Shown here: in pieces, positions 15,398-19,388 of the stretch | How positions within the stretch are numbered: the first letter of the stretch is position 1 | How the letters are laid out: each line of letters begins with the position of its first letter | From: Opitutaceae bacterium | GTDB taxonomy: Bacteria > Verrucomicrobiota > Verrucomicrobiia > Opitutales > Opitutaceae | Direction: 5' to 3' | Length of the DNA: 32,768 nt | Assembly (NCBI GenBank): GCA_030648295.1 | Contig: JAUSID010000176.1 | Location: 1-32,768, forward strand | Made by a program: the position numbers and the translations under genes | Notes under the pieces: generated by a model | Seen by the model: only the letters and a program-made list of their open reading frames with translations | The model's database searches: none | Told to the model about the DNA's origin: nothing

Positions 15398-15423
15398 GTA
15401 GCAGCCGAGGTGACGAGGCTGGA
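15398..15423. repeat. Repeat family D, left half
   Basis: GTAGCAGCCGAGGTGACGAG then GCTGG; identical over at least 23 bases to the left arm at 15591. The 12 bases upstream (CAGTCGGCTTTC) are also shared with that copy. Confidence 0.85.
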
Positions 15424-15590: not shown

Positions 15591-15660
15591 GTAGCAGCCG
15601 AGGTGACGAGGCTGAACCTTTCGCGGCAGCGGATGCCAGCCTCCTCACGTCGGCTGCTAC
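15591..15660. repeat. Repeat family D, complete copy
   Basis: Left arm 15591-15615 (GTAGCAGCCGAGGTGACGAG then GCTGA), about 20-base loop, right arm 15635-15660 (GCCAGCCTCCTCACGTCGGC then TGCTAC). This uninterrupted copy is the reference for reading the interrupted copy at 17246-17460. Confidence 0.9.
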
Positions 15661-15776: not shown

Positions 15777-17147
15777 ATGAAAACCAACGTCCGCCTGCTG
15801 CTTGCGCTGCTCGGCTTGTCCGCCGCGCTGACCCTTCGCGCCGCCGAGCCCGCCAAACCGAACATCCTGCTCATCGTCTCCGATGACCAGGGTTATGCCG
15901 ACACCGGTTTTCAAGGCTCCAGGGATATTCCGACGCCGCACCTCGATAAGTTGGCCGCGGCCGGACTGCGGTTCACCAATGGCTACGTCACGCATCCCTT
16001 CTGCAGCCCGACGCGGGCCGGGTTGATGACCGGCCGGTACCAGCAGCGATTCGGCCACGAGCGGAATCCGTTCTACGATCCGAGCAACCGCGCCGAGGGA
16101 TTGCCGATGTCGGAGACGCTCCTTCCCGCCCACCTGCGGCGCGTCGGATACATGACGGGCTGGATTGGCAAGTGGCACCTTGGCGCTGCCCCGGAGTTCT
16201 CGCCGCTGAAACGCGGGTTTGTCGAAACCTATGGGTTCATTGGCGGCGGCCACCGTTACCGCGAGTGGACGGTGAACCCGGCCGTTGAATACACGGTGCC
16301 GATCGAGCGGAATGGCTCGCCCGCGCCGGTACCCGAGCATCTGACGGCAGCGTTGGGTGAGGAAGCCGCGGCGTTCGTCCGCCGCCACCGGGCGGAGCCG
16401 TGGTTCCTCTATCTCGCTTTCAATGCGCCGCACACGCCGAACGAACCGGCGCCGGAGCGGCTGGCGCGATTTGCGACGATCAAGGATCCGCTGCGCCAGA
16501 AGTATGCTGCGCAGGTCAGCCTGATGGATGACGCCGTCGGTGCCGCACTCACGGCGCTGCGCGACACCGGACAGGAGCGCCGCACGCTGGTGTTTTTCTT
16601 CAGCGACAACGGCGGGCCCGTCGGAATCAACGGCTCCAGCAATGAGCCGCTCCGCGGAGCGAAGGGTAGCGTCTACGAAGGTGGCGTGCGTGTTCCTTTT
16701 CTCGTGTCGTGGTCGGGACGCATTCCGTCGGGCCGCAGTGACGATCGCGTCGTCAGCTCCGTGGATGTGTTCGCCACCGCGCTGGCGGTTGCCGGGGCGC
16801 CGATGCCGGCGGATCGAAAATACGACAGCGTCAACCTGCTGCCCTTTCTCACCGGCGAAAAATCCGGCCAGCCGCACGAGCGGCTGTTCTGGCGCAACGC
16901 CGCACTGCTCGCGGTCCGCGAAGGAAACTGGAAGCTCGTGCGGCAGGCCGCCCAGCCGGATGAACTCTACGACCTCGCGACTGATATCGCCGAGTCCCGC
17001 AATGTCGCCGCCGCAAATCGCGACGTGGCCGCACGACTGGCCGCCGCGCTCGACGCCTGGAACAAGGAGCTGATCGCTCCCGTTTTCCCCGGCGCGCAGG
17101 GACGAAAGGGAAAAGCGAAAAGCGGGACGGCGAAAAAGAAAGAGTAG
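15777..17147 (+). CDS. Secreted arylsulfatase-type sulfatase
   Basis: A 456-residue S1-type sulfatase. The signal peptide (about 1-23, ending LRAAE) precedes 'KPNILLIVSDDQGYADTGF', where D36-D37 are metal ligands. The Cys-type active-site motif C76-S-P-T-R80 is followed by AGLMTGRYQQRFGHERN. Further conserved pieces are GWIGKWHLG, 'FLYLAFNAPHTPNEP' and 'FFFSDNGGP' (second metal site), then the small C-terminal domain with 'EGNWKLVRQ' and 'ELYDLATDIAESRNVA'. The size is typical of the family. The last 15 residues are strongly basic (RKGKAKSGTAKKKE). It needs formylglycine maturation by an enzyme not encoded here. Nearest relatives are usually called arylsulfatase A; the natural substrate is probably a sulfated carbohydrate, inferred from the neighbouring glycosidases. 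Confidence 0.95.
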   Translation: MKTNVRLLLALLGLSAALTLRAAEPAKPNILLIVSDDQGYADTGFQGSRDIPTPHLDKLAAAGLRFTNGYVTHPFCSPTRAGLMTGRYQQRFGHERNPFYDPSNRAEGLPMSETLLPAHLRRVGYMTGWIGKWHLGAAPEFSPLKRGFVETYGFIGGGHRYREWTVNPAVEYTVPIERNGSPAPVPEHLTAALGEEAAAFVRRHRAEPWFLYLAFNAPHTPNEPAPERLARFATIKDPLRQKYAAQVSLMDDAVGAALTALRDTGQERRTLVFFFSDNGGPVGINGSSNEPLRGAKGSVYEGGVRVPFLVSWSGRIPSGRSDDRVVSSVDVFATALAVAGAPMPADRKYDSVNLLPFLTGEKSGQPHERLFWRNAALLAVREGNWKLVRQAAQPDELYDLATDIAESRNVAAANRDVAARLAAALDAWNKELIAPVFPGAQGRKGKAKSGTAKKKE

Positions 17148-17245: not shown

Positions 17246-17459
17246 CGTGGCAGCCGAGGTGACGAGGCTGGCGCTTTCGACTGATCGGATGCCAGCCTCC
17301 TTACCAGACGGGGTGAAAGCACATCAATTCCACCCCAGCGTGTCATTCTGAGCGTAGCGAAGAATCCAGCAGCGTGATCGCATGCGTGTATCCTGCTGGA
17401 TTCTTCGCTGGCGCTCAGAATGACCGGCTTTTCACACCGTCTCTTATGTCGGCTGCTAC
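17246..17459. repeat. Repeat family D, interrupted copy
   Basis: The left arm starts at about 17246 (GTGGCAGCCGAGGTGACGAG). The right arm is split: GCCAGCCTCCTTA at 17291-17303 and TTATGTCGGCTGCTAC at 17444-17459. Joined, these reproduce the uninterrupted right arm at 15635-15660 apart from two C-to-T changes. Confidence 0.8.
17304..17442. mobile_element. MITE-like 139-bp element inside a family D repeat
   Basis: Ends are inverted copies: AGACGGGGTGAAAGC (from 17306) and, read on the other strand from 17442, AGACGGTGTGAAAAGC (one mismatch, one indel). The flanks carry TTA (possibly CTTA) on both sides, consistent with target duplication. The centre is a long hairpin, TCATTCTGAGCGTAGCGAAG (17343 onward) against CTTCGCTGGCGCTCAGAATG (ending near 17422). 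It has no coding capacity, so a transposase would have to act in trans. Confidence 0.65.
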
Positions 17460-17486
17460 GCAAGGACGGCTCGCTGGCGCTCGCCG

Positions 17487-19388
17487 CTACTTTTTCGAGC
17501 CCGCCGTTCCCGCTTCGGACGCTTTCGGCATTCGATCGAAGGGCGGCATTTTTCCGCCGTGCACTTCGAGCAGCCGGCCGTGCGTCAACCGCGCGGCGTC
17601 CACAAGTTCCCGATACGGCTGGTCCGTCACATCGATGAACCCGATTGCGTAGTTCTCGCCATCGCTCCGTCCGGTCGCCGGTTGATCGAGCCACTGGAAC
17701 CAGTGGGCGCCGATCAGGGCCGGGTGCGCCGCCGCCTGCTCGACGTAATACCGATACGCCACACCGCGCTCCTCCTGGTTCATCGCTTGGACAAGTCCGG
17801 GCGCGAGGCCGCGCTCCGGCGCGCCGATGTGAAATTCGCCGATGAGCAGCGGCCGGCCGACGAGCGCGTGAATGCGCTCGAGCGCGGCGCGCGTCGGCGC
17901 GTTTCGGTAGATGTTCACGCTGAAAACGTCGAAGCCGCGCGTGATCGCGAGGAGATCGTCAAGCGGGCTGCCGCCGAACCGGATGCCGAGATTCAGGTGA
18001 TTGGGCGCGTGCCGGCGCGTCGCGGCATTGATCACGGCGAGATAGCGTTCGAACGCCGCAAGCACGAACGCTTTTCTCCGCTCCGGCGTGTCGCCCGTGG
18101 CGAGGTGTTCCTTGAGTCGCCGCTGCATCTCACCGGGACGTCCGGCGAGGATCAGGTTCACGAGCTGGCTTTCGCGATTCGGCCACGAGGGCTCGTTACC
18201 GATGAAGTAGCCGAGCAGGTAGCGATCGTCCTTCCTCGGGCCGAGCTGCGCCGCCGCAACCTCGTCGACGCGCCGCGGGAAATCCTCGGCATAAACGTCC
18301 GGCAGTCCCATCAACGACTCGGCACCGGCCCAGCCCCGCAGCATCTGGGCATACGGCACTCGCGGTTCGGTCGCGGCTTCGAGACTGCGCGGCCCCCAAT
18401 AGTGAATCGTGTTGATGCCCCAGGCACGCAATCGCTGGGTGGTGAAGTCCGCCCAATGGGATCGCGCCTCGCCACCGAACCGGCGCTGAAGATTCCAGGT
18501 GTAAAACGAACTTCCGCCCAGGCTGCTGCGTCCGCCGGGCTGAACCGCCGCGAGGTCGCGCGGAGGCAGCGCCGCGAACAGGTCCTCGCGCCCCTGTACC
18601 CGCGTACCGGACGCGGTGCCCACTCCGTTCATCCCGGACGAAAAGAAAAGGTGTCCCTCCGGACAGACGAACCACCACCGGCCGTCGATCTGCTCCACGC
18701 GAAAGAATCCGGTCGGCCGTGCCTTCGTATCCGGAAACCCACCATACGGGCATGCTGACGCCGGCGTGGCCTTCAACGTCCCTTCCTCCTCCGCCCACGC
18801 GGCTTTCAGCGCGCCGATGGTCCGCACTTTGCCCGGCCAATCCAGCGGGCGATACTGGCCGAACTCGTCAATCAATGGTTTGCCATCGAGCACCGCATCG
18901 CCGGGATCCGTTCTTGCGAGCGCGACCGAGCGCAATTCGAACGTGGGCCGGCCGACCGGCTGGCTCATCGCAACCGTGAGCCCGCGCACGCTGGTCGTCG
19001 GCCCATGGTTGCCGCCGATGTTGATCCAATAGGAGCTCCGCGGCTGGTTGTACGTCGCCGCGAGGTCGGCGGCATTTCCGGGCGGCTGCCGGTAGAATCG
19101 CAGCGGAATCGATGCGCGCACCCACACGCCGGCGAAAGGGCCGATCCGTTTTGAGAGGCGGCCAGTCGCTATATCGATCGTTAACTCGAACCGCTGCGAC
19201 GATGAAGCCCTGAATTCGAGGACGAGAAATTCGTATCCCGTCCAATCCGCCGGCAAACCAGGATCGAGCTCAGCGAGCGGCCATTTGTGCTCCGAGCGTG
19301 CACCGCCGAACTCAACGCGAATCGGCAGCGCGGCCGAGGCGACGCTGGCAGTGAACAGTGCGAGCAGCCACAGTATCGACGTTTTCAT
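17487..19388 (-). CDS. Secreted GH50-like (agarase-type) glycoside hydrolase
   Basis: A 633-residue exported glycosidase. Signal peptide about 1-19 (MKTSILWLLALFTASVASA). The N-terminal 180 residues look like a carbohydrate-binding beta-sandwich. The catalytic barrel starts around 'TGFFRVEQIDGRWWFVCPEG'. Likely catalytic acids of clan GH-A are E399 (GYFIGNEPSWPN, acid/base) and E518 (LLIGEFHIGAPERG, nucleophile). The stretch 'HWFQWLDQPATGRSDGENYA' then 'GFIDVTDQPYRELV' is very like the GH50 beta-agarase family. GH50 enzymes release neoagarobiose from agar. The assignment to the family is moderately sure; agar as substrate is not. It sits between two sulfatase genes, which fits a role in attacking a sulfated galactan or related polymer. 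The protein ends in GSKK. Confidence 0.85.
   Translation of the reverse strand: MKTSILWLLALFTASVASAALPIRVEFGGARSEHKWPLAELDPGLPADWTGYEFLVLEFRASSSQRFELTIDIATGRLSKRIGPFAGVWVRASIPLRFYRQPPGNAADLAATYNQPRSSYWINIGGNHGPTTSVRGLTVAMSQPVGRPTFELRSVALARTDPGDAVLDGKPLIDEFGQYRPLDWPGKVRTIGALKAAWAEEEGTLKATPASACPYGGFPDTKARPTGFFRVEQIDGRWWFVCPEGHLFFSSGMNGVGTASGTRVQGREDLFAALPPRDLAAVQPGGRSSLGGSSFYTWNLQRRFGGEARSHWADFTTQRLRAWGINTIHYWGPRSLEAATEPRVPYAQMLRGWAGAESLMGLPDVYAEDFPRRVDEVAAAQLGPRKDDRYLLGYFIGNEPSWPNRESQLVNLILAGRPGEMQRRLKEHLATGDTPERRKAFVLAAFERYLAVINAATRRHAPNHLNLGIRFGGSPLDDLLAITRGFDVFSVNIYRNAPTRAALERIHALVGRPLLIGEFHIGAPERGLAPGLVQAMNQEERGVAYRYYVEQAAAHPALIGAHWFQWLDQPATGRSDGENYAIGFIDVTDQPYRELVDAARLTHGRLLEVHGGKMPPFDRMPKASEAGTAGSKK

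What the first reader, a model, noticed from the sequence alone, without database searches (positions are those of the whole stretch)
17246..17460. MITE-like element inserted into another repeat, with target duplication
A family D right arm is split into GCCAGCCTCCTTA and TTATGTCGGCTGCTAC. Between them lie 139 bases with 15-16 bp terminal inverted repeats (AGACGG.GTGAAA.GC) and a long inner hairpin starting TCATTCTGAGCG. TTA (or CTTA) occurs on both sides. The uninterrupted copy at 15635-15660 shows what the site looked like before insertion. This gives direct evidence that the hairpin element moves, and a relative order: D first, then the insertion.
Basis: seen in the sequence. Interest (0 to 1): 0.7.

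Follow-up and report, generated by a model that had tools for sequence, protein, structure and literature searches.

The report
Mini-transposon lodged in REP hairpin loop
A 139-base non-coding transposon-like element, itself carrying a repeat hairpin, appears to have jumped into the loop of another repeat hairpin and copied four bases of it, as similar elements have done in related bacteria; it is a clear but modest variant of known mobile repeats rather than a new kind of system.

Summary
Window 17305-17443 is a 139-bp element with 15-bp terminal inverted repeats (TIRs, consensus CAGACNGTGTGAAAA) that splits a family D palindrome at its 4-base loop, TTAC on one side and TTAT on the other. The family carries the argument: of 60 TIR-paired elements from five genomes (own included), 30 have an exact 4-bp direct duplication (shuffled flanks: mean 6.1, maximum 14), and the sites look like loops of short GTAG-tagged (REP) hairpins. 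So family D is best read as a GTAG REP dimer and the element as a MITE that prefers REP loops. Two refinements. The inner TCATTCTGAGCG hairpin is a separate repeat, resembling published CGTC/TGTC-type REP dimers: of 31 complete own-genome copies examined, 11 have both TIRs, 8 one, 12 none. The same TIRs wrap other hairpins elsewhere, in 28 copies in a second genus. No transposase with these ends was found in the draft genomes searched, and no orthologous empty site among congeners. REP loops as IS targets and REP dimers inside palindromes are already published (PMC1525189, PMC3733652); the nested combination is a new variant.

The parts
17305..17443 (+). TIR-bounded MITE-like element, 139 bp
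   Evidence: Sequence; related copies in own genome
17305..17319 (+). left TIR CAGACGGGGTGAAAG (12 of 14 consensus letters)
   Evidence: 1, 31, 64
17429..17443 (-). right TIR, GAGACGGTGTGAAAA on the minus strand (13 of 14 consensus letters)
   Evidence: 1, 31, 64
17301..17304 (+). left copy of the target duplication, TTAC (loop of the interrupted REP)
   Evidence: 1, 31
17444..17447 (+). right copy of the target duplication, TTAT (one base differs)
   Evidence: 1, 31
17341..17425 (+). inner long hairpin TGTCATTCTGAGCG..CGCTCAGAATGACC; reads as a head-head dimer of TGTC-tagged REPs; independent repeat
   Evidence: 2, 12, 62, 65; class by resemblance to the description in PMC3733652
17293..17300 (-). 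first part of the interrupted right-hand family D REP (CAGCCTCC)
   Evidence: 1
17448..17459 (-). second part of the interrupted right-hand family D REP (GTCGGCTGCTAC)
   Evidence: 1
17247..17270 (+). left-hand family D REP of the same dimer, intact (GTGGCAGCCGAG-GTGA-CGAGGCTG)
   Evidence: 61
15591..15614 (+). left REP of the uninterrupted family D dimer
   Evidence: 61
15637..15660 (-). right REP of the uninterrupted family D dimer (paralogous empty site)
   Evidence: 61
15398..15421 (+). single family D REP
   Evidence: 61
15777..17147 (+). upstream gene, sulfatase (PF00884), pointing towards the repeat cluster
   Evidence: 78
17487..19388 (-). downstream ORF of 633 aa without Pfam match at E 0.001, pointing towards the repeat cluster
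   Evidence: 3, 78

Best explanation
The element is a non-autonomous DNA transposon (MITE). Its 15-bp ends (CAGACNGTGTGAAAA) were recognised in trans by a cut-and-paste (DDE-type) transposase encoded elsewhere, which joined it with a 4-bp stagger into the tetranucleotide loop of a GTAG-tagged REP hairpin. Shown here: TIRs, excess of 4-bp duplications, many copies, REP-loop target preference, and different interior hairpins between the same ends in different genomes. Inferred: a DDE transposase, cut-and-paste, and that hairpin structure (rather than the loop sequence alone) is what the transposase sees. The interior hairpin (a TGTC-tagged REP dimer here) is cargo that rides along.
For: 60 TIR-paired elements (14 in G000 with the window, 8 in G004, 9 in G011, 1 in G017, 28 in G408): exact 4-bp duplication in 30 of 60 (permuted mean 6.1, max 14 in 1000). 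Stem next to the loop with >=6 of 8 Watson-Crick pairs (small shifts allowed) in 33 of 60 against 5.4% of 12,082 control positions; GTAG/CTAC tag near the stem foot in 30 of 60 against 4.3% of 36,156 (77). The 30 exact duplications are mostly GTGA/TCAC (17), loop motifs of REPs. D-type sites with exact duplications in the own genome: L012 and L020, both GTAA (31). Elements were chosen by BLAST or TIR-pattern hits and TIR pairing, not by their flanks.
Against: No transposase with these ends was found. 30 of 60 elements lack an exact duplication, the window copy among them. L183 has outer flanks that are inverted rather than direct copies of each other, L013 possibly so. Because the targets are themselves repeats, shuffled flanks give a sizeable background: 6.1 of 60 for duplications, and 5.0 of 32 (max 11) for stems when right flanks are shuffled, against 14 of 32 observed. 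Matches of 5 bases exceed shuffles too at one offset (12 of 60, mean 2.4, max 9), so the exact duplication length rests on symmetry of the ends. No empty orthologous site.
Confidence: 0.85

Rival explanations
1. Composite palindrome made by recombination or template switching: TIR-like arms, REP arms and inner hairpin are juxtaposed by repair at cruciforms, and the 'duplications' are loop sequence shared by related REPs.
For: L183 (and possibly L013) has inverted rather than direct outer flanks; L016 has a complete family D REP in place of its left TIR; half of the 60 elements lack an exact duplication.
Against: Direct 4-bp matches exceed permuted flanks by about 24 of 60 at one offset; other 4-base offsets among the best six settings give at most 13 of 60; targets with other loops (TTCC, TCCC, GAGA, GCCA, TGAA) show two copies of their own loop.
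Confidence: 0.08
2. Movement by a REP-associated tyrosine transposase (RAYT, Y1/HUH), the whole thing being an oversized REPIN.
For: 11 Y1_Tnp (PF01797) matches in the own genome; family D and other targets are GTAG REPs, the substrate class of RAYTs (PMC3733652, section 16). One of the 11 loci (L141) has a GTGGCTGCGAGCG motif as in another target REP type, one (L139) a TIR-like match at 2 mismatches, two (L133, L142) weak core-like matches.
Against: HUH transposition leaves no target duplication (established knowledge); none of the 11 loci shows family D or a TIR pair in the flanks held, some of which are cut by contig ends.
Confidence: 0.04
3. The inner hairpin is itself the mobile element and the TIRs are coincidental flanking sequence.
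For: The hairpin occurs without TIRs (12 of 31 complete own-genome copies), and 25 of 95 genomes, own included, match the element, in most listed rows only over the hairpin, while TIR pairs of that set were recovered in the own genome and three congeners.
Against: The same TIRs enclose other interiors: G408 (28 copies, by eye 27 with one GTAG-type hairpin and L284 with another), G017 L241 (28), own L111 (18).
Confidence: 0.03

Closest known systems
Bacterial MITEs (RUP, NEMIS, ERIC, Nezha etc.)
   Same: 70-300 bp, TIRs of 15-30 bp, no coding capacity, fold into strong structures (as described in the Background passage of PMC3733652 seen)
   Different: 4-bp duplication in REP loops; interior differs between genomes; parental transposase not identified
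REP-targeting insertion sequences: ISPsy8, ISRm22, ISRm19, ISPa11, ISPpu9/10, IS1397 (PMC1525189; abstract, Results, and part 1 of 2 of the Discussion read)
   Same: Insert into REPs; ISPsy8 and ISRm22 at the symmetry axis, with direct repeats of 3 and 6 bp
   Different: Those are autonomous ISs, all the examples named there being from proteobacteria; here a non-coding element with 4-bp duplication in Verrucomicrobia
GTAG REPs, reported also in O. terrae of the Verrucomicrobia (PMC3733652; abstract, passages and sections 5, 6, 7, 16 read)
   Same: Family D and the other targets: GTAG tag, short stem-loop, dimers
   Different: Family number not assigned (the figure with the consensus sequences is not held); here interrupted by the element
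CGTC/TGTC REP dimers, and REP dimers inside palindromes (A. variabilis GTAG-15, H. neapolitanus CGTC-1; PMC3733652 sections 6 and 7)
   Same: Inner hairpin: TGTC tag, AT at stem start, CCA tail, head-head dimer; a REP dimer enclosed by inverted repeats
   Different: Stem here has internal mismatches; the enclosing TIRs show target duplications and a REP-loop target
IS5-like element of congener G011 (L330 1456-2326, 871 bp)
   Same: Ends GAAGCTGTGAAAAAA, about 3 mismatches each to the MITE TIR
   Different: Flanks TAA/TCA do not show the 4-bp duplication; not shown to move the MITE (52-56)

Membership tests
MITE | short, non-coding, multi-copy | tested here: met
   139 bp; 41 places with the hairpin among the fetched own loci, 11 of 31 complete hairpins with both TIRs
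MITE | terminal inverted repeats | tested here: met
   present here and, by selection, in 60 elements; the same consensus in two genera
MITE | target site duplication | tested here: met
   exact 4 bp in 30 of 60 against permuted mean 6.1 (44); at this very site 3 of 4 bases
MITE | cognate autonomous transposon with the same ends | tested here: inconclusive
   none found, but drafts often break at ISs and lists were capped
GTAG REP (family D and other targets) | GTAG/GTGG tag, short stem-loop, many copies, dimers | tested here: met
   78 D-like half-units in fetched own loci; dimer query matches; strict tag in 30 of 60, GTAG/GTGG in 39 of 60 target sites
CGTC/TGTC REP (inner hairpin) | CGTC or TGTC tag, 8-9 bp stem starting AT, 4-5 nt loop, CCA tail, head-head dimers | tested here: inconclusive
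   tag, AT start, tail and dimer fit by eye; the stem has two internal mismatches and the published consensus figure is not held
REPIN mobilised by RAYT | RAYT gene flanked by the repeat | tested here: not met
   11 PF01797 loci show neither D nor a TIR pair (15, 29); L141 has a motif of another target REP type
IS5-family-derived MITE | TIRs and duplication of an IS5-family element | tested here: inconclusive
   30 IS5_3 loci: many of those with a clear inverted repeat have ends such as TAGGGCGTGTTTTCAAA, none has the MITE ends; L330 ends only similar (50-54)

The most novel reading that the evidence does not exclude
The TIR unit is a general carrier: it captures whatever REP dimer or hairpin is at hand (TGTC type, GTAG type, others), often keeps a length near 139 bp, and re-inserts mainly into loops of other REPs, so that repeat families without a transposase of their own (CGTC REPs) are spread by hitch-hiking and nested palindromes build up stepwise.
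Probability: 0.3. Interest if true: 0.65.

Novelty: new variant of a known kind. Interest (0 to 1): 0.45.

Why it matters
It gives a dated layer (REP first, MITE second) and a family-wide insertion rule (loop of a REP hairpin, 4-bp duplication) in uncultured Verrucomicrobia. Di Nocera et al. [quoted passage not shown] here a hairpin of that look rides inside a TIR element with target duplications, which offers one testable route. The REP-targeting ISs named in PMC1525189 are from proteobacteria; this suggests that REP loops attract transposases in a distant phylum too.

Tried and rejected
Autonomous partner by ends: TIR pattern at <=2 mismatches in own genome (73 places) and G408 (84 places), <=1 in the 27 genomes of the genus, own included, exact in 372 genomes of the order (4 of 372 match; places of a genome listed only in part). 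Inward pairs computed from the lists: own 8 short plus two long ones (C55, 2.1 kb, whose far end has 2 mismatches; C207, 3.6 kb, joining two separate short copies); G408 26 short, no long one. In the 30 loci a laxer pairing (sum <=4 mismatches) gave a few partners at 0.5-1.2 kb (L202, L211, L214, L216, L220). The ORFs of C55, L202, L214 and L220 that were scanned are ordinary genes or have no Pfam match, no transposase; L211, L216 and the C207 interval were not scanned. By protein: PF01609 in five genomes, 29 matches, all 29 loci checked; NF033580 in 200 genomes of the family, 96 with a match, 30 loci checked. No element with these ends; one similar IS5-like element (L330; 52-56).

Junction pattern REP loop plus TIR in genome contigs: 10 loci, 7 in genomes already seen (5 in G408, 2 in G004, by equal contig lengths), 1 other Verrucomicrobia MAG with a lone end (L324), 2 that look like chance (L320, L325); none in viral contigs. 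No match to the element in plasmids or phages at E 1e-5. Rfam at gathering threshold: only a tRNA in the window. A fold-based test of loop position was uninformative because controls scored similarly (24 of 32 against 489 of 829) and was replaced by direct stem counts. Orthologous empty site: listed matches in the genus cover the sulfatase gene (64-76% identity), the downstream ORF alone (G023, G022) or the hairpin; no listed row from another genome spans both sides. Viral contigs with the downstream ORF: no relative.

Full report
Observation. The sequence at 17246-17460 is as described. A family D unit on the plus strand (17247-17270) is followed by an inverted unit broken at its loop: CAGCCTCC-TTAC (17293-17304), then 139 bases, then TTAT-GTCGGCTGCTAC (17444-17459). 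The intact paralogue is the dimer 15591-15614 / 15637-15660 (61). The 139 bases begin CAGACGGGGTGAAAG and end TTTTCACACCGTCTC and fold into one long hairpin (z -9.7 as DNA, 62; -10.3 as RNA, 63).

Copies in the own genome. The window is one contig of a 9.12-Mb draft genome of 294 contigs. A search with the element gave 84 matches; merged by script on 36 fetched loci plus the window, 41 places. These searches scored only the 40 best of 117 to 282 candidates, so weak copies may be missing. Of 31 complete inner hairpins in that set, 11 have both TIRs (<=3 mismatches each), 8 one and 12 none. So the inner hairpin is a repeat in its own right. Conversely L111 carries the same ends, 138 bp apart, around an unrelated interior, and L144 is an 80-bp shortened copy.

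Relatives. With a majority sequence of the element, 25 of 95 genomes match at E<=0.001 (own included; 17 of the genus, 8 others of the family), in most listed rows only over the inner hairpin; at most 9 candidates per genome were scored and the list was cut. TIR pairs were recovered in the congeners G004, G011 and G017. An exact-TIR scan of 372 genomes of the order found matches in 4. Of 32 G408 stretches fetched, 28 gave a TIR pair, 20 of them exactly 138 bp between the conserved ends, the rest 127-158. By eye on the alignment, 27 have a GTAG-type REP dimer inside (GTAGCGGAAAGCGTGAGC...) and L284 another interior. Lengths elsewhere vary more, 78-158.

Target duplication. Elements were picked by TIR pairs only. 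Over the 32 elements of G000, G004, G011 and G017, 12 have identical 4-mers at the offset that takes one base beyond AGAC...GTCT on each side (permuted mean 2.0, max 7); over 28 in G408, 18 (5.3, 12); together 30 of 60 (6.1, 14). Sub-windows of the same four bases score 34 (3 bases) and 39 (2 bases) of 60; at a neighbouring offset 4-mers give 13 and 5-mers 12 of 60 (permuted 2.7 and 2.4), because the outer base of the element often equals the next target base. Four bases is the reading that makes both ends symmetrical. The duplicated bases differ among targets (GTGA/TCAC 17, GTAA 2, GCCA 2, TCCC 2, TTCC 2, five others once each), which fits duplication of whatever loop was hit. At the window site the two copies differ by one base.

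Target. The bases abutting the duplication are complementary across it: mean 4.75 of 8 pairs in the first 32 elements against 2.11 in 29,032 control sites, >=6 in 14 of 32 against 0.7%; with right flanks shuffled among elements 5.0 of 32 (max 11), since many targets are the same kind of REP. With small shifts, 33 of 60 against 5.4% (77). A GTAG or CTAC tag lies near the stem foot in 30 of 60 against 4.3%, GTAG/GTGG in 39 of 60 against 13.6% (77). Target types include family D (GTAGCAGCCGAG-GTNA-CGAGGCTG), GTAGCCACGAGC-GTGA-GCGAGTGG and, in G011 and G004, GTAGCCCTGCCC-NNNN-GGGCAGGG (31, 33). These look like the GTAG-tagged REPs of Di Nocera et al. 2013 (PMC3733652), who report such repeats in O. 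terrae of the Verrucomicrobia (I take this to be Opitutus terrae, from memory). In the own genome D loops are GTAA 39, GTGA 27, GTCA 8, others 4 among 78 half-units in the fetched loci. A test by whole-site folding did not discriminate.

Against a simple picture. Thirty of 60 lack an exact duplication. L183 has outer flanks that are inverted copies of each other, L013 possibly too, and L016 has a complete D REP in place of its left TIR. These look like later exchange or templated repair between palindromes; that is inference.

Mechanism. TIRs plus fixed-length duplications point to a DDE-type cut-and-paste transposase acting in trans (established knowledge of MITEs). None with these ends was found: long inward TIR pairs are few, have weak far ends or join two short copies, and those whose ORFs were scanned hold no transposase (84-91; not all were scanned). 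A G011 IS5-like element (PF13340 and PF01609 in two frames, each below the NF033580 cut-off) has related ends (52-56); none of 30 other IS5_3 loci of the family has the MITE ends. The 11 RAYT-type genes of the own genome are not flanked by family D or a TIR pair, though one has a motif of another target REP nearby. The five genomes from which the 60 elements come are drafts of 140 to 650 contigs, where multi-copy transposons are often lost at contig ends.

What is known. ISs that target REPs, two at the symmetry axis with 3- or 6-bp repeats, are published (PMC1525189). REP dimers or elements inside palindromes are mentioned for A. variabilis, T. roseum and H. neapolitanus (PMC3733652 section 7). 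In the held open-licence library, the term sets MITE+REPIN+RAYT, miniature inverted-repeat transposable+repetitive extragenic palindromic+target site duplication+hairpin+bacteria and MITEs+REP sequences+target site+insertion hot gave no paper, and the string tcattctgagcg none. Other sets gave the two papers used here and a few others seen only as listings.

Verdict. Added are the size of the duplication, the REP-loop target rule, and the separability of TIR wrapper and hairpin cargo. It is a new variant of MITE biology; interest moderate.

Noticed in passing
L016 (G000:C92:27067-27187): Left TIR replaced by a complete family D REP while the right side keeps GTAA plus a REP half; looks like templated repair or loss of one end.
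   Followed up: no
L183 (G004:C11:42510-43211), perhaps L013: Outer flanks are inverted copies of each other, giving one continuous long palindrome around the element instead of direct duplications.
   Followed up: partly
L192 (G001:C391), L194 (G020:C58): The same TGTCATTCTGAGCG hairpin lies between other inverted ends (GAGGGTGTCTAAAA / CAGAAGGCGTGGAAAA or alike), possibly a second wrapper family.
   Followed up: no
L330 1456-2326 (G011:C113): IS5-like element of 871 bp with ends GAAGCTGTGAAAAAA and flanks TAA/TCA; transposase matches split over two frames.
   Followed up: partly
L314 88-145 (G408:C70): A free-standing GTAG-type REP dimer related to the interior hairpin of the G408 elements, beside but outside the TIR pair of that locus.
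   Followed up: partly
L229, L230, L235 (G011): Versions of 78-79 bp between the conserved ends with a single small TGTC hairpin inside; minimal form of the family.
   Followed up: partly
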